64,000 nt of DNA from Luteitalea sp. TBR-22. GTDB lineage: Bacteria > Acidobacteriota > Vicinamibacteria > Vicinamibacterales > Vicinamibacteraceae. The translations under genes were made by a program, and so were the position numbers. How positions within the stretch are numbered: the first letter of the stretch is position 1; every line of letters starts with the position of its first letter. This document shows positions 9,334-44,634 of this stretch, one piece after another. The stretch is from positions 5,664,501 through 5,728,500 of the forward strand of contig NZ_AP024452.1 of the NCBI RefSeq assembly GCF_016865485.1, read 5' to 3'. Below the pieces are notes generated by a model, which was not told the DNA's origin, did not search any database, and worked only from the letters and a program-made list of their open reading frames with translations.

Positions 9334-9350
9334 CGAAGAAACTCCAGTCC

Positions 9351-10439: not shown

Positions 10440-10453
10440 ACCCTGATTCTAAC

Positions 10454-10546: not shown

Positions 10547-10551
10547 TCTGA

Positions 10552-18794: not shown

Positions 18795-18796
18795 CC

Positions 18797-20540: not shown

Positions 20541-20750
20541 GTGCACCGAATCGAGCAACACATCAACGGCCGGCTGTACTACATCGAGCTGTCGCAAGTG
20601 CAGCGCCAGCGCTGGCGCGCGCACGTGGTCACGGCGCAGGGCGCCCCGACGGCGCTCATGCCGTTCTACGACGACACCGCCGACGCCGCCGCGCAGCGCC
20701 TGTCGGAGTGGCTGTCACGGCTTCACCGACCGAGCGCCGCGCATGCGTGA
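20541..20750 (+). CDS. small protein upstream of asparaginase
   Basis: A 69-residue ORF from GTG 20541, MHRIEQHINGRLYYIELSQV onward, with a plausible beta-alpha pattern (LYYIEL, RWRAHVVT, then a helix ending AQRLSEWLSRL). It overlaps the first 8 nt of the asparaginase gene, which suggests translational coupling. Composition is less Arg/Pro-shuffled than that of antisense frames here. I know no family. Confidence 0.5.
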   Translation: MHRIEQHINGRLYYIELSQVQRQRWRAHVVTAQGAPTALMPFYDDTADAAAQRLSEWLSRLHRPSAAHA

Positions 20751-27817: not shown

Positions 27818-27825
27818 GGTATACT
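27796..27825 (+). promoter_or_regulatory. predicted promoter of tRNA-Ala
   Basis: TTGGCT (27796-27801) and TATACT (27820-27825) spaced by 18 bp end 15 nt before the mature tRNA 5' end. The promoter overlaps the 3' end of the GGDEF-like gene. Confidence 0.55.
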
Positions 27826-27840
27826 CCGCTGTCTTTGCGT

Positions 27841-27916
27841 GGGCCTGTAGCGCAGCTGGGAGCGCGCCTGAATGGCATTCAGGAGGTCACCGGTTCGATC
27901 CCGGTCAGGTCCACCA
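27841..27916 (+). tRNA. tRNA-Ala(GGC)
   Basis: A 76-nt tRNA with encoded CCA. The acceptor stem GGGCCTG pairs with CAGGTCC (one G-U). The D arm is GCGC/GCGC, the anticodon stem is CCTGA/TCAGG, and its loop ATGGCAT carries anticodon GGC, reading Ala codon GCC. The T arm is ACCGG/CCGGT with TTCGATC. The gene is the likely integration site of the adjoining island: the serine recombinase ORF on the other strand ends inside it. Confidence 0.97.
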
Positions 27917-29397
27917 ACCTTTCATCTCCCCCCTCAATCGGCTGCAAGTAGTTGAACGCCCGTGTAGTTACGGCGGTTCCAACGAAGTCGCGGCCGTCGA
28001 ACGTCATTCCCTCGGGAAAGAACAGCTGTTGGAACCGCTGGCGCTGGTCCAGTGAGGCCTGCACCCACAGGTCTGCGGCGCGGGGCAGCACCCGCTCGGC
28101 AAACGCCAGGATCCCTTCCACGTCGAGCTCTTCGAGCTCCGTGGCGTGCCTGTCGATGCGGAGCAGCGTGAGCTCCTCGCGCAGCTTCTCGGCGTGCCGG
28201 TCGTAGACGTCGATATCGATCGAGCGCTCGAACAGGAACGCCTCGTCCAGACGGTCGAGCTTCTTCTGGATGGCTTCGGCCTGGCGTGCGGCGCGCGCGA
28301 GGTCGGCGCGGGCAGACTCCTTGCGCGCCTTCCAGATCTGGAGGACCGACTCCTTCAGCAGCCGCATGTAGCCGGCGGTCGGCTGCAGCCGGGCCAGCTC
28401 CTTCTCGAACAAGGATTCGAGCCTGGCCTTGGTCACGTTGACGCCGCGACAGCCCGGACGGCAGTGATAGTAGGCGTAGTAGCTGCTTCGCCCCTTCGAC
28501 CAACTGCCGGTGAGGCCGCGGCCGCAGGACTCGCACCGCACGAAGCCACGCAGCGGGAAATCCGGGTGTCCCTGTAGTTGGGGCGCCAGGCTGGGTGTGC
28601 GGCCCGACAGCACGGCCTGAACGCGATAGAAGGTGTCCTCACTGACGAGCGGCTCGAAGTCTCCACGCTTGCCGCGGACCCCGTACTCGGCGACGTCCAC
28701 GACGCCGGCGTAGAGCTGATTGCGCAGCAGCATCCCGATCGCCTGCGAGCTGAGAGGCTGGCCGCGCCGGTTGCGCAGTCCCCAGGCCGTCACCTGCTGC
28801 AGCAACTGCTGCTTCGTGAACCGTCCGGTGGCGTACTCCTCGAAGGCCCGTCGCACGAGCGGCGCGCGTTCGGGATCTGGCATCAGGCTCTTGCCCAACG
28901 CGCGCGGCGCATTCATGTAGCCGATCGGCGCCAGGAACACCCAGCGTCCGAGTTCGAGCGCCGCCTTCATGCCGGCCCGTGTGCGGTCCGAGCGCACGTC
29001 GTTGTCGAACTGCGCGAACGCCGCCAGCACGCCTTCCATCAACTTGCCGGTGGACGTGTCGTCGATCGGCTCCGTCGCGGACCGCAAACGAAATGCCGAG
29101 CGATTTCAGGAGCGAGCGCAACGCGAAATGGTCGTACTTGTCGCGCGCGAATCGCGTCAGGTTGAAGACGACCACGAAGTGCACGCGGCCCTTGTTCGTG
29201 CGGCAGAACGTGAGCAGTCGCTGCAGTTCGGTGCGGTCCGCAGTCTTGGCGCTCTCGCCCTCTTCCTTGAAGCGCTCGAGAACGTCGAGGCCTTCGCGGC
29301 GGCAGTACTCCTCACAGGCCCGGAGCTGGGTCGGCAGGCTCAGGTTCTCCGTCTGCTCCTTCGTGCTGACGCGGATGTAGATGACGGCGCCGGCCAT
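27879..29397 (-). pseudogene. large serine recombinase (site-specific integrase), frameshifted
   Basis: The serine-recombinase N-terminal catalytic domain starts at ATG 29395-29397 with AGAVIYIRVSTKEQ (nucleophile Ser11), then RACEEYCRREGLDV, FVVVFNLTRFARDKYDHF. The frame then leaves the family pattern at a TTT (complement of 29086-29088). Removing one T joins it to RSATEPIDDTSTGKLMEGVL in the next frame, which continues through a recombinase domain, a zinc ribbon (CESCGRG...YYHCRPGC), a coiled coil (AIQKKLDRLDEAFLFER) and on to the end. The last residues, GGDERLVDLTGIEPVTS, are encoded by the tRNA-Ala 3' half. It may be an inactive integrase, a sequencing error or a slippage site; the sequence alone cannot tell. 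Confidence 0.85.
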
Positions 29398-29429
29398 GGC
29401 TGGCAGCGTAGTCCCGTCGCCGAGCGCGT

Positions 29430-29645
29430 TCAAGGCGTTTGTGGTCGGGCGCATCGGTTCACTCGGCCTTGGGCACGCCGGTGCAGGAACACCTCCAGCA
29501 GTGCGTGGGCGAGCACATGCGCGTGGCGGCGCAGCTCCTCGACCTCGGCGTCGGTCAGGTCGGTGGCCTCGTCGCCCAGCAGTTGACGGCAACGCAGAAT
29601 CGGCAGCACGTCTCGCGCGCCTTGCGGTTCGACCATGTCGTCCAT
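29430..29645 (-). CDS. small protein upstream of the recombinase
   Basis: A 71-residue ORF starting MDDMVEPQGARDVLPILRCR, with an acidic helical segment (LTDAEVEELRRHAHVLAHAL) that looks selected. It lies 32 nt upstream of the recombinase on the same strand, probably in one transcript. The start is chosen at the ATG of the protein-like segment. Function is unknown; a recombination accessory role is conceivable but unsupported. Confidence 0.55.
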   Translation of the reverse strand: MDDMVEPQGARDVLPILRCRQLLGDEATDLTDAEVEELRRHAHVLAHALLEVFLHRRAQGRVNRCARPQTP

Positions 29646-30510
29646 GGCGGCGTCCTGTCCTGACACGACCCGCGCCAGGCATGAGCACGGGACCGGTCTC
29701 GGACCATCACGCAGTTGCCGGTCTCCGGCTCGTTCGAGGGTCCCGTCAAGGCCGAAGCCGCGCCGGCGGCGCGGGCCGAGCGCCAGCGAGGCGCCTTGAC
29801 GGGCACGAGAACGGGCCGACCATCGAGCGCGTGATGGTCCTGCTCGTCGAACTGTTCTGGCTGGCGCCACTGGGGCGCTTGCGGCGGGAGCGCCCGGGCC
29901 ATCGCGGCGCGGGCGGTGGCGACCACTCAGGTCGACCAGAGGTGAGACCGATGGCTCCCGGGGGAGATGACCGCCGGGTGGGTGGCGCCGTGCGGCACGC
30001 TCCACGAACGCAGCGCCGGTGAGGCGGTGCGCGACGACACTGCTCTGCACGGGTTCGGGCATGCAGCGCCGTACTGGTCTCTGCTTACCTGAACTCGCGT
30101 TCGCGGCGGAAGCTTACAAAGGGCCCGTGATGCGGCGCTCTGCTTCCCGTCTGGAGGTGCCACCAGCTGGGTCAGGCAGCTGCACCTGCAGCGGGGCGTG
30201 AACGACCCCGTCGGGGCGGGGTGCGGGACCGGGTCCCGCACTCTTTGAGGGGGTCGTTCACGCCCCTACCTCTCCTCTGTGTCGTGGATGCTTGTCTCGA
30301 GATCGGCGGCACAGAGCGCCGCCTCCGGGTCCGGGGCCACCGTGCGCAACCCGTTGCGTCATGGGCCTTTGCAGGCCGACGCTGCGCCGATCGCCAGCGT
30401 GCGAGCCGTAGTCGGGAGGGCACGGACCGATGGGTCGCCATGGGGCCAATAGCCCCCCGGAGCGTTAGCTCCCCCGGTGGCTCCCCTTGGCCCGCGACAT
30501 CACCGTTCCA
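29646..30510. other. 865-nt island segment without a supported gene
   Basis: No frame here has protein-like composition. The DNA holds the nested inverted repeat at 30193-30266 and otherwise looks like decayed island sequence. Confidence 0.5.
30193..30266. repeat. nested perfect inverted repeat
   Basis: A 17-bp perfect inverted repeat (GGGGCGTGAACGACCCC at 30193-30209, complement at 30250-30266) encloses a second perfect 9-bp palindrome (GTGCGGGAC at 30221-30229, GTCCCGCAC at 30233-30241). This gives a 74-nt double-stem structure. It could be an island att core, a terminator, or the end pair of a small element; there is no T-run after it. Confidence 0.75.
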
Positions 30511-30795: not shown

Positions 30796-31557
30796 CTACT
30801 GCGCGGCTGCCTCCGGACGCAAGTCGGTGTGCACCTTGGTTCGCCAGCTGCGGGGGCCGCACTTGAGCACGTGGGCGTGGTGCAGCAGGCGATCGAGCAG
30901 CGCCGTGACGGCGGCGGTGTCGCCGAGCAGCTTGCCCCAGTCATCGACCGGCCGATTGGACGTCAGCAGCGTCGAGGCGCGTTCGTAGCGCCGCATGATC
31001 ACCTCGAGCAGGTCCTCGGCGGCCGTGTGCGGTAGCTTGCGCATGCCGAGGTCGTCGATGATCAGCAGCGGCACGGTGGTCAGCTCCAGCATCAGCGCTT
31101 TGCGCGTCCCTTCCACGCTGGCCTCGGTGATCTCCTCGAGCAGGATGTGCGCTTCGCGATACAGCACGCGATAGCCCTGCAGGATGGCCGCACGCCCGAT
31201 GGCCTGCGCGAGATGGCTCTTGCCGGTGCCGGGCGGGCCGAGGAGCAGCACGTCTTCTCGCTGCGCCACGAAGCGCGCGGTGGCGAGCTCGTGGATCAGC
31301 GCCTGCGGCATCTTCCGGTTGAAGCCAAAGTCAAAGGTGTCGAGGGTCCGCTCGGCATCACGAAAGCCGGCCTGCTGCAGCCGGCGTGCGAGGAGCCGGT
31401 CCTGGCGGCGCAGCAGCTCGTCGCCGACCAGCGCCGAGAGCAGATCGATCGGGGCCTGGCGTTCCTGCTGCGCCTGGCGCAGGCGGGCCTCGAGGACATC
31501 GGCCATCCCGGAGAGGCGCAGCTTGCGCAGGGCGGCATCGAGTTCGGGCAGCGTCAT
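30796..31557 (-). CDS. istB: IS21 ATPase helper protein
   Basis: A 253-residue AAA+ ATPase that assists the IstA transposase in target capture. It begins with the IstB helical domain (LPELDAALRKLRLSGMADVL) and has Walker A LLLGPPGTGKSHLAQA and Walker B VPLLIIDDLGM, followed by TLLTSNRPVDDWGKLLGD as in IstB. Full length for the family. It starts at ATG 31555-31557, overlapping the istA stop as ATGA. Confidence 0.95.
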   Translation of the reverse strand: MTLPELDAALRKLRLSGMADVLEARLRQAQQERQAPIDLLSALVGDELLRRQDRLLARRLQQAGFRDAERTLDTFDFGFNRKMPQALIHELATARFVAQREDVLLLGPPGTGKSHLAQAIGRAAILQGYRVLYREAHILLEEITEASVEGTRKALMLELTTVPLLIIDDLGMRKLPHTAAEDLLEVIMRRYERASTLLTSNRPVDDWGKLLGDTAAVTALLDRLLHHAHVLKCGPRSWRTKVHTDLRPEAAAQ

Positions 31558-33104
31558 GTGGGATCTCCTGTGGTGCGATCGATCAGATCGCGATAGACGG
31601 TCAGTTGACGGATCAGCGGGTCGACCTGCCGCAGCGTGAGCGGCGGCCGTCGCTCCAGGTAGCGGCGGAGGAAGCGGTAATTGAGGACGCGCAGCTCGAG
31701 CGCCGCCTTGGCCGCGTCCTCGAGGGCGATCGGGCCGTAGCGCTTCGCGAGGGCGAGCGCGCCGAGGATGCGGCGTGTGCCGGCCGCGCCGTCGTGCGTG
31801 TGGATGTGCGTGCACAGCGTGTGCAGCGCGGGACCGATCCGGCGGGCGCGCGCCAGGAGCGCGAGCGTCGTCGCCGGCGTCTTGGCGGGCCGGTCCGCCT
31901 CCGCGATGCGGTGATGCCCCCGCGGCCCACGCACATGCTCGCGCAGCAGTTGGCCGTCGAGCGTGAGCAGGCGCACGACCCCATCGGTCCACTGCACCTG
32001 GACACGCTGGCCGATCCAGCCGGGCGGCGCCGAGTAGTAGGCGGCCTCGACCTCGACGCAGCCATCGAGATGCACGGTGCGCGTGCCGTACCGGTAATAG
32101 CGAAACGGCGTGACGGGAAGCGCCTGCAGCACGGGCTGCTCCTCGGCAAACATCGCGGCCACCTGCCGCTTCGTCGTGCCGTGGATGCGGGTGTCCGCCC
32201 AGTGGGCCGTCCAGCGATCGAGGTAGGCCTGCGCGTCCTCGAGGGACTCGAAGCGCTGCCCCTTGAGCGGCGTCTGCTTCGCGTGGCCGACGCTGCGTTC
32301 GACCTTGCCCTTGCGATCGGGATCGCGCACGCGACACGGCAGCGCCGTGACGCCGTAGTGCGCGAGCACATCGCGATAGAGCGGATTGATCGTCGGGTCG
32401 TAGACGTCCGGCGTCAGCACGCCTTCGCGCAGGTTGTCGAGGACCAGCACGCGCGGGGCGCCGCCCAGCTGACGAAGCGCCTGCTCGTGCAGCGTGGCCC
32501 AGATCGCCGCGCTCGACTGCCACGTGAGGAGGTAGACGGCCTTACGCGAGTAGCCGAGCGTCAGCACAAACAGGCGTGTGCGCCGGTGTTTGCCCCCGCC
32601 CGGCGGCCGCACCATCGGCCCCTCGCCGTAATCGACCTGGGCCTCCTCGCCCGGCGCGGTGACGATCACCACGCGCGCCTCCGGCGTCGCGGCACCACGC
32701 AGCCGGCCGACGAAGCGCCGGACGCTCGCGTAGCCGGCCGTGAAGCCGTGGTCGTCGACCAGGTCCTGCCAGATCGCGCGGGCGTTCCGCCCGCGACCGA
32801 CCGCCTCGGTGATCAGGTCGCGGTACGGCGTGCAGGCGCTCGCACTCGAGGCGCGGGACGGTGTGGGGTCGGTGGACACCCCCGTCGGCGAAATGGCCGG
32901 ATTTGCCGCCGCTTCGCTCGGCGGCGCGGGCGCGTCGGCCCGCGGCCGCCCGCGGCCCCGCACGGCGACACCGGCGGCCCGGAGATAGCCGCTGATGGTC
33001 TCGCGGCGCACGCCGGTCGCCTGCTCGATGCGGCGCAGCGACCAGCCCAGGCGCCCCAGCGCCACCACCTGCTGCTGTTTTTGTGGGTCCAAGACGTTCC
33101 CCAT
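31554..33104 (-). CDS. istA: IS21 transposase
   Basis: A 516-residue DDE transposase. An N-terminal helix-turn-helix (GRLGWSLRRIEQATGVRRET) is followed by an Ala/Pro linker, then the RNase H-like core with QVDYGEGP (first Asp), RVLVLDNLREG (second Asp) and GKVERSVGH (Glu). The C-terminal HTH/beta-barrel region follows. An in-frame ATG at 33143 is an alternative, but the N-terminus MGNVLDPQKQQQV is the form I expect for the family. The gene looks intact. Confidence 0.92.
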   Translation of the reverse strand: MGNVLDPQKQQQVVALGRLGWSLRRIEQATGVRRETISGYLRAAGVAVRGRGRPRADAPAPPSEAAANPAISPTGVSTDPTPSRASSASACTPYRDLITEAVGRGRNARAIWQDLVDDHGFTAGYASVRRFVGRLRGAATPEARVVIVTAPGEEAQVDYGEGPMVRPPGGGKHRRTRLFVLTLGYSRKAVYLLTWQSSAAIWATLHEQALRQLGGAPRVLVLDNLREGVLTPDVYDPTINPLYRDVLAHYGVTALPCRVRDPDRKGKVERSVGHAKQTPLKGQRFESLEDAQAYLDRWTAHWADTRIHGTTKRQVAAMFAEEQPVLQALPVTPFRYYRYGTRTVHLDGCVEVEAAYYSAPPGWIGQRVQVQWTDGVVRLLTLDGQLLREHVRGPRGHHRIAEADRPAKTPATTLALLARARRIGPALHTLCTHIHTHDGAAGTRRILGALALAKRYGPIALEDAAKAALELRVLNYRFLRRYLERRPPLTLRQVDPLIRQLTVYRDLIDRTTGDPT

Positions 33105-33248
33105 GGCGCTCACGGACGCACAGGGCGTCCGGGCGCGGTTCACGTCTCGGCGCCGGCCTCAGGAAATGGCCGGTTTTGAGGTGTCGCTAATGGCCGGATT
33201 TGGGTATGGCCGGTTTTGAGGTGTCGCTAAATGGCCGGATTTGGGTGT

Positions 33249-34247
33249 TCACCGAGGGCTCTCGCCTGGCAGCCTCGTCGCCGCGCCCGCCTTTCGCGCC
33301 CGGCACCACCAACGGAACTCGTCGGCCATGTGGGGCGCCAACCGCGTCCCGAGCTCCAGGCGCAGGGCCCGGATGTAGGAATCACGCGCCTTGAACAGGT
33401 GCGGCGGCAGCAGCACCCGCACCGTCCATCGCCGGACAGTGCGTAACAGCTCCGCGTGCCGCTGCAGGAACGTGTAGAGGTCCACCGTCGACGGCTTCGA
33501 GGCGAGGTACAGGAACGTGTACGCCTCGCCGGGCTCGACGATGCCGATGGGCTGACGGTCGGGGAAGTAGCGCACCGTGACGTGCGGCGGGGTGCCGAAC
33601 CGGAGTTGTGGCAGCCACTCGATCGTCAACGCGGTGCCGAAGGCGCGGATGAAGTGCGTCCACTTGTCGCCCTCGGTCGCAAGCCACGGGATAGAGGGCT
33701 GGTCGAGGACGGCGTCCAGCATCATCAGCCGCTCCATGGCGCGACCGGTCGGCAGCGGCTTGCGATAGCGGCTATGGGGCTCGCCGATGGCGGCGTACAG
33801 CCGTCGATGGTGGATGTGATAGAGCCGCGCCCGGGCATGGAGCGCCGAGTACGGCGTGGCGATGCGCCGTTCGACCAGACGCGCGAATAACTCGCGCGCG
33901 TTATGGCCGTGAGCGATGCCGGCGAACGTGCAGTACTGCCGCACCATGCAGACGCCAGCGTGCAACATCACGGTCACGAGGAAGGCCGCCTGGCGCTCTG
34001 TGAAGCCCTCGGTCTGCAGAGTTGCGACGCGCGCCTCGAAGGTCAGCGAAGAGGCGAGTGACCGGGCGGGGCGGCCCCCGCCACTGCGTAGGACTCGAGG
34101 GCTCGTTCGGCCAGCGCCGCCAACTGATTCGACCGAGGTAGCGGCTCGACGCGATCCAGCGCCCAGTAGGTCATGCTGCGACGGAACGGATCCGTCTTGA
34201 TGCTCCGGCACGGCGTTCGTCTCCGGCGAGGTCGATGTGTCCTGCAC
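33249..34247 (-). pseudogene. 5' part of an island gene interrupted by IS21
   Basis: A 332-codon ORF from GTG 34247 whose stop (33249-33251) lies in the IS terminus, so the native C-terminus has been replaced. A winged-helix-like pattern runs through FTERQAAFLVTVMLHAGVC and YCTFAGIAHGHNARELFARL, with a later RARLYHIHHRRLYAAIG. Such helix-rich proteins often neighbour recombinases in acidobacterial islands, but I have no function for it. In another frame at 34043-34174, MTYWALDRVEPLPRSNQLA looks more like the true N-terminus, so an additional frameshift near 34050 is likely. Confidence 0.55.
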
Positions 34248-34249
34248 AT

Positions 34250-34660
34250 TCGTCCTGCACGAAGTAGAACCCGCGAAGTGCCTTCGACCTTACTGAGCGG
34301 TAGCGAATCGCGACATCGCTCGGTAGCCAGGACATCGCCCGGTTGAAATCGCCGTCCGGGACGCGTCGCACGCTCGTTCAGGTCGGCCATGGAGTCTCCG
34401 AACGACCACCCACTGCCAGAGCGGACTCGTCGAGGCCAGGTCTAGGCCGACGAAAGCGGGGGGAGGCTTACCAGGGAGAGAGACCGGGATTGCCGCGAGG
34501 CGAGTCGCTCGCGGGCGTGTAGGCCTGGCAGCGACTGTCGCGCCAGACCCTGCTGCTCCAATCAGGCAATTGCCCCTTGGCTTGGTCGCAACACTCTACT
34601 CCGGACAGCTCATCCGCACGCCGTCACGGCGAACTACCGACAGGTGGTCATACTCCTTAA
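34250..34660. other. 411-nt gap between the IS-split gene and the cyclase-like gene
   Basis: No ORF with protein-like sequence and no clear promoter or repeat was seen. Base composition drops in GC from here rightward. Confidence 0.4.
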
Positions 34661-35644
34661 CTAATCAAGCAGCTCGCGGAACGACTGGTACTTCGGTACG
34701 CGCCTACCGTGAGCGGCGTGATGACACTGGACTGCGTGACGTATGGCTGCTTGAGAATGCTTTGAGACGTCGAGAGAGGCGTCGAAGTTCTGAGGTGAGT
34801 AGAACTCGCGAACGCTCTTGTCCCAGACCTGGAGAAATGTCTGGATTGCCGCGTCGGCGTCTTCATTGTGCGCTCCCCACACCTGTCCTGATTCGTCTTG
34901 CAGGGGTCTCATCAGCAGCCAGGGCACGTCAAGCACCCGACGGCGATGAAACAACACTTCTCCCTTGGCAACTGCTTCTGCGTTCCCGACCTGCGCTACC
35001 CACCGGCGCAGACCGTTCGTCACGCGGCCATTGTCACCGCGAACCTGGAGAACGCGGAGCGCGTCGATCCCGCTCTCATCAATAGTCACAAGGCCGCCGG
35101 CCGAATGCCGTTCCAATTGGTAGGCCCGAACGATTGCTGAGCCCGCCAAGACGCTGCGAGGATCGATCCCATTGTATCGAGGGTGGGACGCGTCTGTTGG
35201 CAGGAGTAAGACCTGGCCGTTGGCGATGGTGACCCGGGGGGCGATCAGGTGAATGAAGAAAGGCTTGGTACCGCGGTTGAGGAACTCACGATTGAACGCC
35301 AGGCACGTATGCGAAAGAGCAACCCCGAAAGCCAGCGCCTGATGAAAGCTCTCGGCAATGGCAAACGTGGCGTCAGAGAACCTCCGTACCGCGATCTGCG
35401 GGACTTCTGCAGCGACGAGCGTAGAGGCGCGGTCGAAGCGTACGATGTTGTTCAGTACGACGGGCTCTGATCGAAGAGCGCGGGACGCGAAAGCAACGAG
35501 ATCAGCGTACACAACCCATCTTTGGGCCCACTCTTCCTTCCACTCACGCGAATTGATAATACCGAGTCGTTTGGACGCGATGTGCTCGGTCAGAGCAGTC
35601 GACGACCGAAAATGATGTGGCTGCGGAGCTTTTCGGCGCGGCAT
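34661..35644 (-). CDS. divergent class III nucleotidyl cyclase-like protein
   Basis: A 327-residue cytosolic protein. Its motifs match, in order and spacing, the catalytic domain of class III nucleotidyl cyclases such as Pycsar-type cyclases: YADLVAF (Asp48 as the first metal ligand), RRFSDATFAIAES (Asp91 as the second), an A-P-R-V-T-I-A-N-G block (residues 135-143) where related proteins have R-G-(G/A)-I-x-x-G, and AGSAIVRAYQLER (167-179) for the G-x-A-(L/V)-x-x-A-Y-x-L-E motif, then GGLVTID. The changed R-G-G-I block weakens catalysis as a conclusion. It is the third and last gene of the STAND cluster. Could be an inactive sensor. Confidence 0.6.
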   Translation of the reverse strand: MPRRKAPQPHHFRSSTALTEHIASKRLGIINSREWKEEWAQRWVVYADLVAFASRALRSEPVVLNNIVRFDRASTLVAAEVPQIAVRRFSDATFAIAESFHQALAFGVALSHTCLAFNREFLNRGTKPFFIHLIAPRVTIANGQVLLLPTDASHPRYNGIDPRSVLAGSAIVRAYQLERHSAGGLVTIDESGIDALRVLQVRGDNGRVTNGLRRWVAQVGNAEAVAKGEVLFHRRRVLDVPWLLMRPLQDESGQVWGAHNEDADAAIQTFLQVWDKSVREFYSPQNFDASLDVSKHSQAAIRHAVQCHHAAHGRRVPKYQSFRELLD

Positions 35645-35851
35645 GATCACGGCATGATACCCGCGCTCTTCGCGATTTGAGGAGCTACTCGATGGGGATT
35701 CGGCACGGCGAGCATCTCCATCATGTCTAGAGGGATTCGGCCGCGCGGATCGGCGTCAGCGCCTGCACGCGCAGACCTTTGCCTCGGAGCTCAACACGTG
35801 GCGCAACTCATTCACTTGCCGCATGCGGTTTCGCACAGTGGGCGAGACACT

Positions 35852-36670
35852 CTACTTCGCCCGAGCTCCTGATCGCTTTCTGGCTTGCTTCCCCTTCGTC
35901 GCTCGCGCTTCTGGCTTAGATCTGTTCTCCTGCAGACTTCCATCGCCTAGAACCGCTGCCAGAGCGAACCGCGCTGCTATCGCATTCACCATCGCGTTAC
36001 ACAAGATCTGCCGATTGATCGCTATATTGCTTGGGTCCACTGAAGCCAGCCGCGGCAGCAGCTTCAGAACAGGCTTGCTCAAATCAGACATCTGTTCGTC
36101 CCGCCTGCCGAACACAATGACGACTTCGTCTTCCCGGCCAGAAGCTGTGGTGCCGGCGGTCTTCTTCGCCTCACTCAGGGCAAGCAGATAGCGGCGAAAG
36201 AGACCCTCGGCATGTGCGAGCCAGCCAAGAACCGCGTCAGACAGTTCCAGAGAAATGCCATTGATGTTCTGCGGGTTTTCAAGGAGCGGCCGCAAAAGAG
36301 CTGCCGTCTCGTCGTCAATCTCTTGAACGCGTCTCTCCCACCAGTCCACCTGCGCACGAACGTGGAGCGCGTCTCGCGCAAGCTGAAGTTCCCATAGGGC
36401 CGGAACCAGTTCTGCAATCTCGGCACGAACAGCGGTGCGCGATGCGCCGGTGGTCCTCCTCTCTCTCTCAAGCAGCTCGGCAAGATACGCCGCCATCCAA
36501 CGCTCAAGGAACCCTGGACGCTCGGCGCGCCCGCGGTCCGCCGCGATCGGTTTCTTGAAGATTTGCGCTAGCTCCTTCGCCTTCTGGCGAAGCAAGTCGT
36601 CTTCCGCTTGTTGCGACACCTCCACTCGGCGACCCATCCTAGAGTGCCCGTCCCAACAAACCGACTCCAT
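35852..36670 (-). CDS. helical protein between the STAND NTPase and the cyclase-like gene
   Basis: A 272-residue protein, highly charged and helical (RQKAKELAQIFKKP, ELLERERRTTGASRTAV, VPALWELQLARDALHVR), with a basic tail (KPEARATKGKQARKR). It has no signal peptide, membrane segment or recognised enzyme motif. It starts 27 nt after the STAND stop codon, so it should be in one operon. ATG 36637 is an alternative start; neither has a strong ribosome binding site. Its position next to a STAND NTPase suggests an accessory or regulatory subunit; this is inference from context only. Confidence 0.6.
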   Translation of the reverse strand: MESVCWDGHSRMGRRVEVSQQAEDDLLRQKAKELAQIFKKPIAADRGRAERPGFLERWMAAYLAELLERERRTTGASRTAVRAEIAELVPALWELQLARDALHVRAQVDWWERRVQEIDDETAALLRPLLENPQNINGISLELSDAVLGWLAHAEGLFRRYLLALSEAKKTAGTTASGREDEVVIVFGRRDEQMSDLSKPVLKLLPRLASVDPSNIAINRQILCNAMVNAIAARFALAAVLGDGSLQENRSKPEARATKGKQARKRSGARAK

Positions 36671-36697
36671 ATGACATCGGGAGATGAATCTTCATCG

Positions 36698-39600
36698 CTA
36701 CACGATCCCGTTGGAGATCTGACTCCAGAGGAACACCCGGCCTGACCCCATGTCCAATTGGCCGACTCGATCACTGCCACGTCTCTCCTCGCGCCTGAGC
36801 CGAACCTGAACGATGAGATCAAGCGGGCCATCGCTGCCGCCAGCGAGCAGCGTTTCCCCAACTTGGTCCGCTCGAATGATCAGTCGCTGTCCGCTTGCCG
36901 ACCTACCTCTTCGTTCAACGTGCCACGTCTCGTACTTCGCCACCTCGGCGCCCGACGAGTCCCGCCATGACGGCTGCCCGAATGCGCGGCGCCAGCCAAG
37001 AGTATCCGCGATTCTCGGCGAAGGCAGGATGTAGCGCCGACTTGTCCCGGGCCAGCTGGAGTCACTGCTGTGTAACGGCAGCTCCTGACTGAATCCGATG
37101 TCTGTGGTGAACAGACGAAACCGCCCGTTGCGGCCTGCGTGTTCACCTTTCACATGCGCCAGGTCAGAGCCTGTACAACATGCCTCATAAGCCTCCAATA
37201 CAGTGCAATCGTAGTGAGGCTCCCAGAACGGCAGATATCCATGAGCATCTTGATCTGGATCCTCGAGAAGGCGTACCAGCGAACACGCCGTGCGGGCGTC
37301 CACTAAGGCGGCGTCAACGGTATAGGAGTAGCTCCAATTCCATTCCGATGCCTGACGGCTGCCGCTGAGTACGAACCACCCCTTCGGGACACCGGCAGTG
37401 AGTTCTCGCAGGTATGCTTCCTCCTTGCGGTTCTTGCACCACTCTACGATCGGCTCACGTACGATGCCATAGTTATCCGGCACCGCCGGCGGAGCATCGA
37501 CCCAGCGGCCCGTAAGCTCAGGATCTGCACCCCGCGCGCGATATCTCATGAAAGATGGCCAGCGGTCAAACCAATCCCCGCTGCGGACCGGAATTTGATC
37601 GATTAGGTCACCAGCAAGGAGGAAGAGGGCCTGACGCGCTCCATGCATCTCCAAGAGCTCGACCCGTGGTTCTTGCCCTTGCCGATTGTCGATATCCGAC
37701 CATTCGTACCGGTCGCGCATGTTCGCGCGCTGCGTATCAGCCCCTAGTTTAGTCACGCCCACTCGCGCCGACCACTTCTTGGCCGCCAACTGAACAGACT
37801 CTGCAAGCTCTCTTGGTTCAACCGGGAAGCTCTCCATCATCGGCTGATACCAGTACCTCTTTGTGTCCCAGTCGTCGATCTCGATGCCATCGCTCTCAAG
37901 TAGCCCTCGCGCCAGTAGCGGCGCGGCGACGAACGCGGCATCCTTATGAACTTCACCCTGAGGACGATTGATTGCTTCCAGCGCGCGTAGCGTGTCTGGA
38001 GACAGCTCCAGGGCGGCAGCTGCATTGGCGGCTCTAATCGCCCCAGACAGGTGCGCTCGAATCTTCACGTGAGGAAAGTCGGCTGACAGAGCGTGCCGGA
38101 GCAGGCTATCTGCGAATGGCTTCAGCATCTTAGGACTGCGACCAGCCACGTGGAGCAATGCAAACGCCAGCCACTCCCGAGCCGCGGCCCACATCGGCTG
38201 AGATTCGTCGTCGAACTCGCGCATCAAGCCCTCAAGCAACGTGACGCCCCCAGCACGCTGGCCCTCGGCGCTCTCAGAGGATCCGAGAACCCCCTGAGAG
38301 TCACAGAGCCCGCTGACGACACCGTACAAGGCGGCCCACCGAGCGCTCAAACTCGGATGAGAGAGACATCGGGCAAGAAGTACCGCAGTCGTCCGTTGTG
38401 GCGCTACGCCAACAGGCACGGCACGATACTGATACGGCGCAGAGTTCATGGTCTCCTGCACCACACTCTCGACGGTCCTGACTGCGGCTGAAGGATCCAG
38501 GAGCGACGCAACACGCGCGAATACCCGAAACAGAGAGCCCGCTGGCAAGTCCGTCAAACTTACCGCGACCTTCTCCATCAGGGTCCGTCTTCGTTCCTCC
38601 TGCGACGCCCAGCTACCGGAAAAGATCGCTGCAGAGAGGCGAGGCTCCCAGTCGAAGGAGGCGCGCTCGATGACATCTGGGTTCAGCAGGTGAGCCAGCG
38701 CATTTGCAACGTCCAGCCTCACGTCCTCAGGAACAACTGAGTCAGAGGCCTGCTCGACTAGCGCATTGAGCAGGACGACGGCTTCGTCGATGCGGTACGC
38801 CCCCGTGCCGGCCCATCGCTCGATCACCTGGGCAACTCGACGTCGATCGCCTATAGGGAGGTCGCGCGCGAGCGTAGCGACGAGCCTTCCAAACTGCGCC
38901 GTAGCGATTGACGCCAACTCCTCCGACGTTGCTGCTTCGAGAACCTCGAGCGCCCGCCTTGCAGAGTGTCTGTTCAGGGACAGCACTCTGGAGACGATCT
39001 CGGGTTCCGCGTTCTCATTCTCGCCTGGCCACGATGGCCCATCCTGCCGCGATTGCGTCGTATCGATGTCGGCACCGATTGCATCAGCTATCGCCCTCAG
39101 ACCGTTGGCTTCGCCAGTCTCACCGAGTGCTTCCACCCAGGACGCACACTCTATGAGTTCACGGAGGCCGTCCGAGCGGCCTTCTGCCGCTCTGATGCGA
39201 ATGAGCCTCGACACGGATCTGAGCGCAACACCGGCGACTCCATTGCGCTCCCCGAATAGACCTTCGATGACATTCTTGGCTACCTTGGGAAACTCACGCG
39301 TCTCAGCGCCAATCTCTAGCAGCGGCCAGAGTTCGCCACGACTGCCCACCCCTGTGCTCAATGCTCCCGAAACGATCGCCATCGATGCCCGGGAGATGGG
39401 GTACAGTCCGTCACGATCGAGAATGGAGGCTCTTTCGACTGCCGCGACCGGATCCCGCCCCGCCAGACGTTCGATCGCCCAGTGGACGGAGACGCCCTCC
39501 TGCGATATCCCGAGCCAATACCCTGTCAGTGCGCAGATTCGATCCAGCAGCGTCGCGTCTGGTCCCGAATCGGACAACGAGCATGCCGCAGCCGTAATCC

Positions 39601-42600
39601 GCTCAAGTGCCGCTGCACGGTCAGGGGCCAGACTGTCTACTTCTCCGGCCACATCACGTGCTTGCTCAATAACCTGTCGGGCAAGTTCTTGGTCAATCCG
39701 ACGGGCTGGCTTGTAAAGGGCCAAGAGCCGTCCGACGGCTTCGGGTCCAGGGACGGATGGCGGCCTGCAGCGAGCCAGCTCTTCACGTACGAGCCGGTCG
39801 GCGACACCGAGGTACCTGGAGTCTTGAGAGAGCACCTCTGGCATGAGGACGTCGAGATCATCGCGCCGTCCTCGCCTGCCGCGCTCTAGAGCGTCCAAGA
39901 TCTCTTGGACAAGCTTGTCGTCGCGCTTCTGCAACGCGATCACACCTTCCAGGAGGCGAGCTGCAGTCGTTGACTGAGAAATCACGTAGGCCTGATCTAC
40001 GTGGTGTTCCTGGGACAATGCAGCGCGAATGGCCGCCGTTGCGTCTCTCGCGCCGGCCCAGGCGAGAGCCCGCGCACGAAGCGCTGGATACAACGCCTTC
40101 ATCTCGCGACGCAGCCGCTGATGCTCGGAGTCATCCGGCTTCTTCTCGCTGGCGACGGCCCCCCTAGGCGGGTGCTCGTTCGCATCGGGATCGAACTTCG
40201 TGACACCGAGGGCCTCACTGAGCGCATGCCATCGCAGGTAGGGCTCGACGATGCTTGGAAGCCAATCCAACGGCTTTGGTGGCGCCCACACCTGCAGAAG
40301 TGACCGCGCGTCGACCATCAGGTTGGCAGCTGTCAACTGCTCAACCGCATCGAGAAAGGCAGACGCGAGAACGTTGGAATGCGGTAGTGTGTGTCCGCCG
40401 CTGAACTCAGTACGAAGCGCTGGACTTCTGCCCAGCTGTCTCTTAATAGTCCTAACCGAGCGCCGGACCCAGGCGGACTTCAGGTCGCTAAGGCCACTGC
40501 CCGCCGGGCTATCGGCAGGGCGCGCAGAGAGAACGCCCAGCAGCGCGCCACACTTCGCCGGTCCATTGATCCGGGCGACATTGATGATTCCGAATGGGTC
40601 GCTGACTTGGCCAGCCCGCCAATCGGCAGCAGCCACCGCCGCCATTTGCCACGACCATGGCCTGGAGGAGGAGCGCGTTGCCCAACGCAAAGCGCGTTCC
40701 AAACCATTCACACGCACGTGATAGCGAGCTACTGCCGCCCACACATCCATATACAACCGCCCGCCAGATTGAGGATGGGCAGCGTACTCTTCCTGCTTCA
40801 CAGCTGCCGCACGATGAAACAGGCGTGCGGCATCTTCCCGTCGTTCCGGGCGACGCGCCAGCGCTGACGCGAGGCGAAAGTCCTCGTCAGCATTCGCGCG
40901 GCGCCCCGTCCGTCGCCGATGTGGGGAACCGCCTCGTCCGGCAGCAGGCCGCGTTGCCCCCGCCGTGACTTCGTCATCGAGTAGTCCAACAAGATCCGCG
41001 TCCACGGCCACTTCCACGTTGCTAGAAAGCGCATCACTGAAGGCATCTCTCCCACCGGCCAAAGCAGCCGCCCTGAAGAGCCACAGGATCGCATCCTCAT
41101 CGCGCCCAAGTCTGACCGCCGCGGTGATGACGGCACGGATATCCTCCAGAACCCGTTCCTCGTGCGGCTGCGCGGCGAGCTTCTGGGCTTCGATACGACC
41201 AGGCGTACTCCACCACTGAAGAAGCTCGTCGTGCCGACCAGCTGCGAGAAAGTGGTACGAGAGATTCCAGCGCGCGTACGCGTCGACAGCAAATCGCCCG
41301 ATGCAATAGTCGGCAATGCGCTGCTGGGCGGTCGTGCGCTCCCCTTTCAGCCGCTCCCCGACCCAATCGAGGAAGTCCTGGTCGTTCCATCGGACTGTGT
41401 CGACGTCAGTCACATGAACGCCGAAGCTAAGAGCTCCCAACCCTCGTCGTAGATCAGCCTCCGCCCGTCCGAGGGCCGCCGCCAGTGTGTCCAGCGCTGG
41501 AGGCTGGCGCAACTCGTATAGCACCGCCAGAGCAGCCCGAAGATCTGCGGCCGCGAGTCTCCGGCCGAGCTCCTGCTCGTAGTAATCGAATGCGGTGGCA
41601 CGTGCGGTTGATTCGATCAGCTGGCGAGCTGAGACGTTCGGGGCTTCGGCAAGTTCGTCGAGGACCTTTGCAGCGACGCGTGGATTCCCTCGCGTGCGCT
41701 GGTGCAGAAAGGCAATGTCACCTGAGGGGATTACGGCGGATCGAGTCGTAGCGAGCTTAGACAGCTCGGGCTCACTGAAACCGAGCACCTCAACCCGCTT
41801 AGCCGGCGATACGCCGGGAGGGACTACGTCGCCCTCATTCTCAGTCCGAAAGGACAACGCGATCGCACAGTTCTTTGGCCAAACGACTTCCCAGAGCAGT
41901 GGTAAGAACGGATCGTCATTTGAGATGCTTCGGCGTCTCTGTTCGATTGCGTTATCAACCGCATCGATCGCGACCACCAACCGCTTGCCTTCAGAACTCG
42001 CGACAGACGCTGCAGCGCGAACAGCCTCTTCAAAGCGCCTCAGTAGTGGGCGATAGCTAAGTTGTGTAGTCGCAAGAATGCTAGTTCGAAATCGACGCTC
42101 AAGCTCGTTGATCAATTGCACGAGGCAGACGGTGTACCCGAATCTCTCATGCCCCGGCCGCAAGCCTGCGCCACCTGCATAGCAATCGAAGACAACGGCA
42201 GCGCCATGCTCACGGAGGGCAACTTGCAGCGCACTAGTCTTGCCCACACCCGCGCGGCCATGAACGACGACGATCCCGTCCACACCTTCGAGCGTCCGTC
42301 TTAGCTCTCGACTCGCAACCGTTGAAAACAAGTTGCCGTCATCCGGAAGAACGGGAGGCGCCGGAAACAGCTCGTCTTCGCGAAGTCGCAAGAACGCCAA
42401 GACGTCCGAACGGCTGATATCGACTCTGCGGCCTGGCGTCGAGGCCGTTTGGAGATGCGAGAGCAGAGCTTCAACGCGAATCGAAGCGTCGGGAAACGCC
42501 CCGGCGATTCCCGAGAAAATCTGCGATTCCTCAGCCGCGAGCATGGCCTGATCGAACGAGTGCAAGTCCCAACACGCCATGAGCTGCCGAAAGCGCGGCC

Positions 42601-43228
42601 AACTCAAGCCAGATGCCTTCTGCAGTCGAACCGCTGTGCTCCGCGGTTTTGCTGGCAATTGGGACGCGCGGCGACCAGCCGCTCGTGGAGACTGACTGAA
42701 CGCGAGACGAATAGCTTGAAGCTCTGCTCGGAGCCCACTACTGAGCGGCTGATTCGTGAGCAATCGAAGAGTCACTCCCGGTGTGCCAGCCGCGCCTCCG
42801 GGTGCCATCGCATCGAACATGTCTGCGAGCTTCCGAAAGACCGACGATCGGGCCTTCGCTCTTCCCCCAGCGTGGTCTTCTGACACGAGGCGAGACAGCG
42901 TCCAAGGGGTCGAAGGACGCAAAGGGCTGTACTTGACTTGCACCAGCACGATCGCTTCGGCCGAGTGAGCGTCTGTTCCTCCGTAGTACTCGGTCAGGTC
43001 GGCGGCAAGAAACGTGCGCTCGTCGCGCTGCAAGCTTTGGTCGGCCGGTGCCACGCCCTCGATGGCGATAGACTTGAGATGCGACGACGGATGGAGCATC
43101 TCGAGTGCGCGTCGCGCGGCATAGGCAAGGTGGTAGCGATCTCCAGCGTTCGATGCACGTGCATCGAACGAGGATGAGTGTCGCTTCTTGCGCCGAATGG
43201 GGCGCTGTTTCGTCGTATGTTTTGCCAC
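36698..43228 (-). CDS. Avs-like STAND NTPase with N-terminal Cap4/DUF4297-like nuclease domain
   Basis: About 2176 residues from GTG 43228; an upstream in-frame start at 43462 would add 78 non-conserved-looking residues. Residues about 25-110 match the Cap4/DUF4297 dsDNA nuclease: GDRYHLAYAARRAL, IAIEG, a LTEYYGG segment and VQVKYSPL...PWTLSRL, keeping the E...Q-x-K pattern. A STAND P-loop VVHGRAGVGKTSA lies near residue 325, with Walker B LVVAIDAVDN near 420. The remaining roughly 1500 residues are helical (TPR/HEAT-like) with a few beta-rich stretches, as in Avs sensor regions. In characterised Avs proteins this part recognises phage terminase or portal and activates the nuclease. It leads a three-gene cluster. 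Confidence 0.78.
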   Translation of the reverse strand: MAKHTTKQRPIRRKKRHSSSFDARASNAGDRYHLAYAARRALEMLHPSSHLKSIAIEGVAPADQSLQRDERTFLAADLTEYYGGTDAHSAEAIVLVQVKYSPLRPSTPWTLSRLVSEDHAGGRAKARSSVFRKLADMFDAMAPGGAAGTPGVTLRLLTNQPLSSGLRAELQAIRLAFSQSPRAAGRRASQLPAKPRSTAVRLQKASGLSWPRFRQLMACWDLHSFDQAMLAAEESQIFSGIAGAFPDASIRVEALLSHLQTASTPGRRVDISRSDVLAFLRLREDELFPAPPVLPDDGNLFSTVASRELRRTLEGVDGIVVVHGRAGVGKTSALQVALREHGAAVVFDCYAGGAGLRPGHERFGYTVCLVQLINELERRFRTSILATTQLSYRPLLRRFEEAVRAAASVASSEGKRLVVAIDAVDNAIEQRRRSISNDDPFLPLLWEVVWPKNCAIALSFRTENEGDVVPPGVSPAKRVEVLGFSEPELSKLATTRSAVIPSGDIAFLHQRTRGNPRVAAKVLDELAEAPNVSARQLIESTARATAFDYYEQELGRRLAAADLRAALAVLYELRQPPALDTLAAALGRAEADLRRGLGALSFGVHVTDVDTVRWNDQDFLDWVGERLKGERTTAQQRIADYCIGRFAVDAYARWNLSYHFLAAGRHDELLQWWSTPGRIEAQKLAAQPHEERVLEDIRAVITAAVRLGRDEDAILWLFRAAALAGGRDAFSDALSSNVEVAVDADLVGLLDDEVTAGATRPAAGRGGSPHRRRTGRRANADEDFRLASALARRPERREDAARLFHRAAAVKQEEYAAHPQSGGRLYMDVWAAVARYHVRVNGLERALRWATRSSSRPWSWQMAAVAAADWRAGQVSDPFGIINVARINGPAKCGALLGVLSARPADSPAGSGLSDLKSAWVRRSVRTIKRQLGRSPALRTEFSGGHTLPHSNVLASAFLDAVEQLTAANLMVDARSLLQVWAPPKPLDWLPSIVEPYLRWHALSEALGVTKFDPDANEHPPRGAVASEKKPDDSEHQRLRREMKALYPALRARALAWAGARDATAAIRAALSQEHHVDQAYVISQSTTAARLLEGVIALQKRDDKLVQEILDALERGRRGRRDDLDVLMPEVLSQDSRYLGVADRLVREELARCRPPSVPGPEAVGRLLALYKPARRIDQELARQVIEQARDVAGEVDSLAPDRAAALERITAAACSLSDSGPDATLLDRICALTGYWLGISQEGVSVHWAIERLAGRDPVAAVERASILDRDGLYPISRASMAIVSGALSTGVGSRGELWPLLEIGAETREFPKVAKNVIEGLFGERNGVAGVALRSVSRLIRIRAAEGRSDGLRELIECASWVEALGETGEANGLRAIADAIGADIDTTQSRQDGPSWPGENENAEPEIVSRVLSLNRHSARRALEVLEAATSEELASIATAQFGRLVATLARDLPIGDRRRVAQVIERWAGTGAYRIDEAVVLLNALVEQASDSVVPEDVRLDVANALAHLLNPDVIERASFDWEPRLSAAIFSGSWASQEERRRTLMEKVAVSLTDLPAGSLFRVFARVASLLDPSAAVRTVESVVQETMNSAPYQYRAVPVGVAPQRTTAVLLARCLSHPSLSARWAALYGVVSGLCDSQGVLGSSESAEGQRAGGVTLLEGLMREFDDESQPMWAAAREWLAFALLHVAGRSPKMLKPFADSLLRHALSADFPHVKIRAHLSGAIRAANAAAALELSPDTLRALEAINRPQGEVHKDAAFVAAPLLARGLLESDGIEIDDWDTKRYWYQPMMESFPVEPRELAESVQLAAKKWSARVGVTKLGADTQRANMRDRYEWSDIDNRQGQEPRVELLEMHGARQALFLLAGDLIDQIPVRSGDWFDRWPSFMRYRARGADPELTGRWVDAPPAVPDNYGIVREPIVEWCKNRKEEAYLRELTAGVPKGWFVLSGSRQASEWNWSYSYTVDAALVDARTACSLVRLLEDPDQDAHGYLPFWEPHYDCTVLEAYEACCTGSDLAHVKGEHAGRNGRFRLFTTDIGFSQELPLHSSDSSWPGTSRRYILPSPRIADTLGWRRAFGQPSWRDSSGAEVAKYETWHVERRGRSASGQRLIIRADQVGETLLAGGSDGPLDLIVQVRLRREERRGSDRVGQLDMGSGRVFLWSQISNGIV

Positions 43229-44463
43229 GGCCGCACGTATTCTTCCACATTCATGGGAACTTGTAGGTGCAGCCTTCGCGTCCGTTGCTGTCCGCGCGGG
43301 CACAAGTGACACTCGGCGCCGCTCGCGGCCCGAGGCAGGTCCGCTCCTGTCTAGTTCTTGTTGGGTGCAGCAGCTTTGGGCGGCGGACGACGCCGACCTC
43401 GCGTGACTCTTTCCGATGCCGGTCACTTGCAGGGCAGGTTGGCTCCGCAGGGTTGCTCCCACGCTCGCCCTCCCTCACGGTCATGCAGTCTCTGCGGCGG
43501 CGGGCACTTTCAGAGCGATGCACAGAACCGTAGGAGCGGAGTGCGACGTGCCGACCTGAAACCTGCGATGGTCGGGCACGACGTAGTTGCGGGCCGATGT
43601 GGCCCGGAAGCAAAGCGCGTTTCCTTGCTGATAGCAGGGGCCAGATGTCCGTTAGGGACGAGCTCCGTGCCGCGGCCGCAATTGATCTGTGTCCGCCTCA
43701 ATCGCGGTCGTCACTTCGGTAGTCTTGCGAGGCACGCGCGCGGCCGGACTGATGCGGTTCGCCATAGCCGCGTGGAGAAGCAATTCCATCCGGAACCTGC
43801 CGAGGACATGGCGGTTGCGCTCCAGCCACCAACCCTGCTGGCGGGGACGTCCGCTCAGCGTCGGCACCATCTCACTTCTGAGGTCAGGCTGCACGTCGCA
43901 TCTGTTGGAGACTATGAAGCCAACTCCGGACTCGGTTCCAACTGGCGCTGTTCAGGTCCACCATCCTTCGCTCTTGATCCAGGCGAAGGATGCCCACCAT
44001 AGCGCCAAAGGCGCGACGGTGGGCCCCACGCTGTCACCGAACGAGCTTCGGATGGCAGGCCCCGGTCCCCCTCCACAACCATGCAGGGCCGCTGTCGACA
44101 GGCGCAGTCGCGTTGGTTGACTGATCAGGTCGATGGTTCGCAGAAGCTGCGCCGCCGCCCTGGCATCTACGTCACCGCCTGCCTGCGGTTCGCCACGAGC
44201 CGAGCGCGGGTGGGAGCTGGTTGTCGGGCCAGTCCGTCACGTCACGCCACGACGATGGGATGGGCCGGGCGACGGCTGTGGGCCCGCGAGCACCCGGGGG
44301 TCGACTGCACCAACGTCCGCGATCTCGCCCATCAGCGCGCGGGCCTGGCGCCGGCATGGCCGATAGTTCCCACGATGCTGCGCCAAGGGGAGGCACTGGT
44401 GGAGGTCGGGGACAAGCTTCGCTGAGGGCAGAAAGACAGAGCCTCTGGTCCGGTCGATTCCGC
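43229..44463. other. 1.2-kb decayed island segment
   Basis: Several short frames are open, but none has convincing coding composition. One minus-strand frame near 43652-43894 (SGRPRQQGWWLERNRHVLGR) could be an old gene fragment of unknown type. The segment precedes the recombinase remnant, and a 12-nt match to the tRNA-Ala 3' end lies at 43952-43963. A roughly 200-nt stretch after the remnant (44635-44849) is also gene-free. Confidence 0.5.
43952..43963 (+). repeat. possible att remnant matching the tRNA-Ala 3' end
   Basis: TCAGGTCCACCA at 43952-43963 repeats the last 12 nt of the tRNA gene (27905-27916), in the same orientation. This could be the right attachment repeat of the island. A 12-mer can recur by chance, and the flanking bases do not match, so the call is weak. 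Confidence 0.3.
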
Positions 44464-44634
44464 TCAGGCATCGCTGGGGATGGCAACGTCGCTCGCCTGA
44501 GACGCCGCTCTGGTCGGTCCGGCGGGTCCGACGAAGTCGCGGCCGTCGACCGTCATTCCCTCGAGAAAGAACGCTGTTCGGAACCGCCGGCGATGTGCCA
44601 GTGAAGCCCGCACCCGCAGGTCTGCGCCGCGGCA
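44464..44634 (-). pseudogene. 3' remnant of a second serine recombinase
   Basis: On the minus strand, RGADLRVRASLAHRRRFRTA, then FFLEGMTVDGRDFVG, matches the C-terminal region of the recombinase at 27.9 kb (RAADLWVQASLDQRQRF, FFPEGMTFDGRDFVG). After that the sequences diverge, and the frame ends in TGA at 44464-44466. It has no catalytic domain and no upstream continuation. The remnant has the same orientation as the left recombinase. Confidence 0.8.

What the first reader, a model, noticed from the sequence alone, without database searches (positions are those of the whole stretch)
34661..43228. Candidate new antiphage system: Cap4-STAND NTPase, helical partner and cyclase-like protein
Three same-strand genes of lower GC lie in an integrase island. 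The first looks like an Avs-type sensor with a Cap4/DUF4297-like nuclease. The second is unrecognised and only 27 nt away. The third has the motif order of Pycsar-type cyclases. I know of no described system that joins a nuclease-bearing STAND protein with a cyclase-like gene. The cyclase-like protein could make a second signal, or be an inactive regulator.
Basis: inference. Interest (0 to 1): 0.86.

Follow-up and report, generated by a model that had tools for sequence, protein, structure and literature searches.

The report
Divergent Avs3 phage-defence pair, orphan neighbour
Two of the three genes are a distant version of a known bacterial anti-phage system (Avs3, a nuclease-bearing sensor and its helper) carried on a mobile island, and the third is an unexplained gene beside them with no good evidence that it belongs to the system.

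Summary
The three low-GC, same-strand genes are real but not a new three-gene system. Gene 1 is a divergent Avs3a of AVAST type 3: PADLOC E 3.8e-50, NCBIfam 7.4e-68, solved SeAvs3 2.6e-29. Gene 2, called unrecognised, is the known partner Avs3b: a profile built without it finds it at 2.1e-10, and Avs3b-like genes follow the Avs3a-like gene in 19 of 22 relative loci. Both score far below NCBI's equivalog cut-offs, so they are outlying members. Gene 3 is an orphan: no family and no convincing relative in the searches made (and others). Its cyclase resemblance is two Asp motifs 43 residues apart. A Pycsar-cyclase profile gives it 0.2% while true cyclases left out score 97.7-100%. Its fold prediction is unusable. 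All three genes sit in a roughly 16-kb serine-recombinase island at tRNA-Ala, bounded by a 12-base repeat; a same-genus genome has other cargo at that site. Verdict: a divergent AVAST type 3 member plus an unplaced cargo gene. Interest is low to moderate.

The parts
36698..43228 (-). Gene 1: divergent Avs3a (N-terminal Cap4-like nuclease region, STAND NTPase, long C-terminal region)
   Evidence: PADLOC Avs3a E 3.8e-50; NCBIfam NF041816 E 7.4e-68, 229 bits against a cut-off of 2800; PDB 8dgc SeAvs3 E 2.6e-29; alignment of 10 sequences with invariant E57, D77, Q97, K99, G327, G329, K330, D422, D425, N426
35852..36670 (-). Gene 2: divergent Avs3b, predicted all-helical
   Evidence: PADLOC Avs3b E 7.6e-6; NCBIfam NF041817 E 2.8e-4, 20.9 bits against a cut-off of 200; profile from 19 relatives without the window finds it at E 2.1e-10; helical model, mean pLDDT 58.2
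34661..35650 (-). Gene 3: orphan, no family; two Asp motifs spaced nearly as in class III cyclases; co-inherited cargo
   Evidence: no match in NCBIfam, PADLOC or PHROGs; two Pfam matches below cut-off, E 0.028 and 0.11; no convincing relative; coding signal by one of two codon models
27841..27916 (+). tRNA-Ala (GGC), integration site
   Evidence: ARAGORN; Rfam tRNA 62.4 bits
27905..27916 (+). left attachment repeat (last 12 bases of the tRNA)
43952..43963 (+). right attachment repeat, identical 12 bases; a mean of 0.02 matches per window in 100 shuffles
27879..29688 (-). serine recombinase region of the island (two overlapping frames listed: 27879-29087 and 28639-29688)
   Evidence: Pfam Recombinase, Zn_ribbon_recom and Resolvase on 27879-29087; frames
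30796..33143 (-). insertion element in the island: transposase (31554-33143) and an ATPase frame (30796-31554 as scanned)
   Evidence: Pfam rve and Mu-transpos_C_2; ATPase-type PADLOC matches; ORFs; naming as IS21/IstB is recalled
44506..44632 (-). remnant of a second, related recombinase just outside the island
   Evidence: 81% identical over 127 nt to 27957-28083

Best explanation
Genes 1 and 2 form a divergent AVAST type 3 (Avs3a-Avs3b) anti-phage system, carried as cargo on a serine-recombinase island at tRNA-Ala. By homology, the large C-terminal part of gene 1 binds a conserved phage protein (the large terminase in studied Avs3; this link of type to ligand is recalled). The STAND domain then brings N-terminal nuclease domains together, and these cut phage and host DNA, stopping the infection at the cost of the cell. 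Gene 2 is the conserved small helical partner, whose role in the complex I do not know. Gene 3 arrived on the same island and is a separate or accessory cargo gene of unknown activity, not a required component. Shown here: homology, gene order, conserved residues, island ends. Inferred from the family: ligand, multimerisation, nuclease activity. Unknown: gene 3.
For: Gene 1 matches Avs3a models and SeAvs3 and aligns along its length with nine relatives, among them an annotated Klebsiella Avs3a. An Avs3b-like gene follows the Avs3a-like gene in 19 of 22 relative loci; gene 2 is found at 2.1e-10 by a profile that excludes it. No gene 3 relative among the loci's frames (only the window and its own genome's copy L001 among 3,772 frames) and no believable match in 11 whole genomes that hold the pair. 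Island ends: identical 12-base repeats. The same 12 bases stand at the tRNA and at the start of a second recombinase copy in a same-genus genome with mostly other cargo. Mechanism of Avs1-4 and of Avs3 nuclease dimerisation: passages in PMC12931631 and PMC12198126.
Against: Both genes fall far below the NCBIfam equivalog cut-offs (229 of 2800 and 20.9 of 200 bits), so ligand and activity may differ. Pfam shows only AAA/NACHT-type matches for gene 1, all below cut-off, and no nuclease family; the nuclease assignment rests on alignment with Avs3a. Three of 22 relatives lack a recognised Avs3b-like gene (L004, L006, L008). Gene 3 shares strand, GC and codon-position pattern with genes 1-2 and lies 201 nt downstream, so a local accessory role is not excluded.
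Confidence: 0.88

Rival explanations
1. The three genes form one new system in which gene 3 is a cyclase-like protein that makes a nucleotide signal or regulates the STAND nuclease.
For: Same strand, same lowered GC and codon-position pattern, 201-nt gap. Two Asp motifs 43 residues apart; PycC catalytic Asp pairs are 44 apart (D102/D146, D62/D106; passages of PMC11224242). A motif written from gene 3 occurs in 15 of 20,000 shuffles of it, and among 3,772 frames finds gene 3 (twice, as window and L001) and one true PycC-like frame, L024:7899-8726. AVAST systems are known to gain extra gene pairs (passages of PMC12799240).
Against: The motif was chosen after the fact; it also hits a NiFe hydrogenase and misses 4 of 8 true PycC. 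No PADLOC model matches gene 3 up to E 10, while a true PycC matches 13 PycC models up to E 1. Profile comparison gives gene 3 0.2%, matched or beaten by 28 of 100 shuffles; eight true PycC, each left out in turn, score 97.7-100% and a divergent one 86%. Adding gene 3 to the PycC alignment does not bring its Asp residues onto theirs. No relative of the pair was found with gene 3.
Confidence: 0.06
2. Gene 3 is an independent small defence, counter-defence or element-maintenance gene on the island, unrelated in function to genes 1-2 (compatible with the best explanation of genes 1-2).
For: Orphan; not found beside the pair elsewhere; the island site carries mostly different cargo in a same-genus genome.
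Against: No positive evidence of any function; the shared codon-position pattern suggests that the three travelled together.
Confidence: 0.5
3. Genes 1-2 are no longer a working system (decayed cargo).
For: Decay occurs in relatives: L024's Avs3-like frame is interrupted by a TAG and L016's is in pieces with another ORF between.
Against: In the window both frames are open, the positions invariant in the family are kept, and the two genes share a codon-position pattern.
Confidence: 0.06

Closest known systems
AVAST type 3 (Avs3a + Avs3b), e.g. SeAvs3 (PDB 8dgc) and Klebsiella avs3a/avs3b on NZ_CP089387.1
   Same: Large protein co-linear with the nuclease-region and P-loop residues kept; small Avs3b-like gene directly downstream
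   Different: Only 16-29% identity to the nine relatives in the alignment; below NCBIfam equivalog cut-offs; a 27-nt gap where the two annotated genes overlap in five of five relative loci with both annotated; an extra orphan gene downstream
Avs3-like pair in an Acidobacteria MAG (L015/L019, QHVT01000018.1)
   Same: Closest relative found: 40% identity over the N-terminal 740 residues, with an Avs3b-like gene
   Different: No gene 3 there; I did not look for a recombinase island at that locus
Pycsar (PycC cyclase + PycTM/PycTIR)
   Same: Two Asp motifs in gene 3 with nearly the spacing of the PycC metal-binding pair
   Different: No PycC profile match, no PycTM-like ORF in the window, no PF18967 match in the whole genome

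Membership tests
AVAST type 3 (Avs3) | Avs3a-type large protein, homologous along its length | tested here: met
AVAST type 3 (Avs3) | N-terminal Cap4-like nuclease site | tested here: met
   E57, D77, Q97 and K99 invariant in 10 of 10 aligned, including an annotated Avs3a; no Pfam nuclease model matched; that these are the catalytic residues is inference; activity untested
AVAST type 3 (Avs3) | STAND NTPase with P-loop and Walker B | tested here: met
   G327, G329, K330 and D422, D425, N426 invariant in 10 of 10 aligned; AAA_16 E 1.3e-6, below its cut-off
AVAST type 3 (Avs3) | Adjacent Avs3b | tested here: met
AVAST type 3 (Avs3) | NCBIfam equivalog cut-offs (2800 and 200 bits) | tested here: not met
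   229 and 20.9 bits: a divergent family member, not an equivalog by that rule
AVAST type 3 (Avs3) | Triggered by a phage packaging protein, cuts DNA | not testable with these tools
   needs phage and co-expression assays
Pycsar | PycC cyclase (gene 3) | tested here: not met
   No PADLOC match up to E 10 although a true PycC matches 13 PycC models up to E 1; hhalign 0.2%, reached by 28 of 100 shuffles, with left-out true PycC at 97.7-100%
Pycsar | Two metal-binding Asp about 44 residues apart (gene 3) | tested here: inconclusive
   D50 and D93 present; motif weakly specific
Pycsar | Cyclic-nucleotide-gated effector beside the cyclase | tested here: not met
   No PycTM-like ORF in the window up to E 1; no PF18967 match in the genome; PycTIR not searched separately

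The most novel reading that the evidence does not exclude
Gene 3 is a very fast-evolving, cyclase-fold third component unique to this lineage's Avs3, acting as a signal maker or a catalytically reduced regulator that modulates the STAND nuclease.
Probability: 0.05. Interest if true: 0.65.

Novelty: new member of a known kind. Interest (0 to 1): 0.2.

Why it matters
It extends the Avs3 pair to a divergent branch in a high-GC genome whose phylum is, by inference, Acidobacteriota. The same comparison showed an Avs3b-like partner in 19 of 22 diverged relative loci, which argues that it is a core part of the system. It also shows a tRNA-Ala site with changing island cargo in one genus. The new three-gene system with a cyclase, which would have been important, is not supported.

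Tried and rejected
Gene 3 as a Pycsar cyclase: rejected as unsupported. Gene 3 relatives: plasmids at E 1e-3 (none) and E 10 (four records at E 7-8, none credible); phages at E 0.1 (none); genome contigs (none) and viral contigs twice (none), which by their design find close relatives only; own genome (itself); own phylum 396 genomes (itself only), order 162 (itself only), class 193, 11 genomes that hold the pair, 259 genomes of the phylum of L030 and 261 of the phylum of L020. The samples overlap. Weak hits: 20 of 193 genomes have a match at E up to 1, one being the window's own and the best other E 0.0012. I looked at seven of these loci (L036-L040, L043, L044, L036) and judged them chance: short, patchy, or not found again by phmmer. 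L041, L042 and the rows without loci were not inspected. In one search two hits (E 0.0026 and 0.008; L074, L075) look like chance. L072 and L073 have stop codons inside.

Single-sequence structure of gene 3: mean pLDDT 36.6, not used. Gene 2 model from 13 sequences: mean pLDDT 58.2, helical only, not searched against fold libraries. Promoter and terminator scan over 34400-37000: 0 promoter-like sites (0.5 expected) and 2 terminator-like sites (1.8 expected). Papers: the listings of full-text searches showed no title or abstract on an Avs3 system with a cyclase-like gene. The lists were capped at 25 of 9,819, 15 of 358 and 10 of 403 papers, so this is weak. I saw passages only of PMC11224242, PMC12931631, PMC12198126 and PMC12799240. 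Two papers asked for by recalled ids are not held.

Rows dropped before the 22-locus count: L001 and L010 (own), L011-L014 (short versions of loci refetched), L018 (contig end, N-terminal match only), L019 (same contig as L015), and plasmid hits H7, H8, H9 and H12 of 12, which were not fetched. L004 is counted among the 22 although phmmer with whole gene 1 did not find it at 1e-5; tblastn did. L020 holds only some 680 bases beyond its Avs3b-like gene; its whole genome was searched.
Full report
What is there. Three minus-strand genes lie at 43228-36698, 36670-35852 and 35650-34661. They have lower GC than the rest of the window. Their codon-position GC is alike and unlike most neighbouring genes. 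A codon model trained on gene 1 prefers the annotated frame of gene 3; one trained on five other genes of the window does not, but it also misses the annotated frames of genes 1 and 2. The gap is 27 nt between genes 1 and 2 and 201 nt between genes 2 and 3.

Gene 1 is an Avs3a. It matches the PADLOC Avs3a model at E 3.8e-50 and Avs1b at 6.2e-6, the NCBIfam Avs3a model at 7.4e-68 (229 bits; the equivalog cut-off is 2800), and the sequence of the solved SeAvs3, 8dgc, at 2.6e-29 in two stretches, residues 19-742 and, more weakly, 1584-1989. Pfam gives only AAA/NACHT-type matches, all below cut-off. An alignment with nine relatives (16-29% identity), including a Klebsiella protein annotated as Avs3a, runs the whole length. 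In 10 of 10 rows it keeps E57, D77, Q97 and K99 in the nuclease region, G327, G329 and K330 of the P-loop, and D422, D425 and N426. Reading these as a PD-(D/E)xK-type site and as Walker A and B is recalled knowledge.

Gene 2 is an Avs3b. Direct matches are weak (PADLOC 7.6e-6; NCBIfam 2.8e-4, 20.9 of 200 bits). In 19 of 22 relative loci an Avs3b-like gene follows the Avs3a-like gene; the three without a recognised one are L004, L006 and L008. In the five of these loci where both genes are annotated the two overlap. A profile built from the 19 without the window finds gene 2 at 2.1e-10 among the window's 573 frames. The predicted fold is all helical but of low confidence (mean pLDDT 58.2).

Gene 3 is an orphan. 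There is nothing in NCBIfam, PADLOC or PHROGs, and in Pfam only two matches below cut-off, E 0.028 and 0.11. I found no convincing relative in plasmids, phages, viral contigs, genome contigs or sampled genomes; the weak hits that I inspected are short and look like chance. Among 3,772 frames from the loci held at that point, only gene 3 itself matches, in the window and in the same genome's stretch L001. Eleven whole genomes that carry the Avs3 pair have no believable match (one hit at E 0.07 has stop codons inside). Relatives below the sensitivity of these searches would be missed.

The cyclase idea. Gene 3 has D50 and D93 in motifs that resemble the metal-binding pair of class III cyclases; in PycC structures the two Asp are 44 apart (passages of PMC11224242). 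But a true PycC matches 13 PADLOC PycC models up to E 1, and gene 3 none up to E 10. Profile comparison with eight PycC gives gene 3 0.2% probability; 28 of 100 shuffles reach that, the best 1.81%, while the eight true PycC, each left out in turn, score 97.7-100% and a divergent cyclase from L024 scores 86%. A motif written from gene 3 occurs in 15 of 20,000 shuffles. Among 3,772 frames it picks gene 3 (twice), the divergent L024 cyclase and a hydrogenase of this window, and it misses four of eight true PycC. By eye, the later cyclase positions (an Asn and a basic residue in PycC) seem to be missing in gene 3; that is my inference, and the automatic alignment did not place the Asp residues together. 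The structure prediction was unusable. So cyclase-like remains a guess.

A cautionary parallel. In Mucilaginibacter psychrotolerans (L024) a genuine Pycsar module (PycTM, PycC and a second, weaker PycC match) lies directly upstream of the Avs3-like gene, with a Septu-like ATPase downstream. A Mucilaginibacter flavidus locus (L025) with the pair shows no Pycsar genes in the stretch held; of the 24 sources scanned (the window and 23 loci), only L024 did. So an Avs3 pair and a cyclase system can be neighbours without, as far as seen, being one conserved system.

The island. tRNA-Ala lies at 27841-27916. Its last 12 bases recur exactly at 43952-43963, where shuffling expects 0.02 matches per window. 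A serine recombinase lies next to the tRNA, and a remnant of a related one lies just beyond the right repeat. In the same-genus genome G125 the tRNA and recombinase are conserved (87% over 26810-30327). Of the island beyond that, only 33520-34276 finds a match in the 19.9 kb fetched. The same 12 bases stand again at the start of a second recombinase copy. The three genes are therefore cargo of an island of about 16 kb at a re-used site. The window's phylum is inferred as Acidobacteriota, because the same-phylum contig G286:C31 (122,466 bases) is QHVT01000018.1, an Acidobacteria MAG.

How it likely works. From passages of PMC12931631 and PMC12198126: the nuclease activity of Avs1-Avs4 cleaves phage and host genomes upon recognition of phage packaging proteins or another phage protein, and in Avs3 the STAND domain mediates dimerisation of the N-terminal nuclease. 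I infer the same for gene 1, with gene 2 as conserved partner of unknown role. Its ligand may differ given the divergence. Gene 3 is left without an assigned function; the most likely reading is independent or accessory cargo. AVAST systems elsewhere have gained extra gene pairs (passages of PMC12799240), so an accessory role is possible in principle.

Verdict. A new, divergent member of AVAST type 3, plus an orphan gene. The claim of a new nuclease-STAND-cyclase system is not supported.

Noticed in passing
L024:7381-9739 (Mucilaginibacter psychrotolerans): A Pycsar module (PycTM, a PycC and a weaker second PycC match) lies directly upstream of an Avs3-like pair, with a Septu/PDC-M01A-like ATPase at 18576-20558 downstream; a same-genus locus (L025) shows no Pycsar genes.
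   Followed up: partly
G286 (L015 on contig C31, L034 on contig C41): The genome that holds the closest Avs3 pair also holds a PycTM-PycC pair, on another contig.
   Followed up: no
L024:9932-16348: The Avs3-like frame of this locus is interrupted by an in-frame TAG at 13370-13372, so it reads as two consecutive frames.
   Followed up: no
L016:3538-11751: Avs3-like gene in pieces, with a 458-aa frame that looks like a transposase (9266-10642, by eye) between the pieces.
   Followed up: no
window 33249-34247 and L069:13524-14280: A gene of unknown family (weak PADLOC ZorG match, E 0.0088) near the island's insertion element has a 76% identical DNA relative ahead of the second recombinase copy in a same-genus genome.
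   Followed up: partly
L069:5807-8104: The relative's cargo at the same tRNA-Ala site includes a frame with subtilase (E 1.5e-19) and IetS (E 2.6e-9) matches in PADLOC, possibly other defence cargo.
   Followed up: partly
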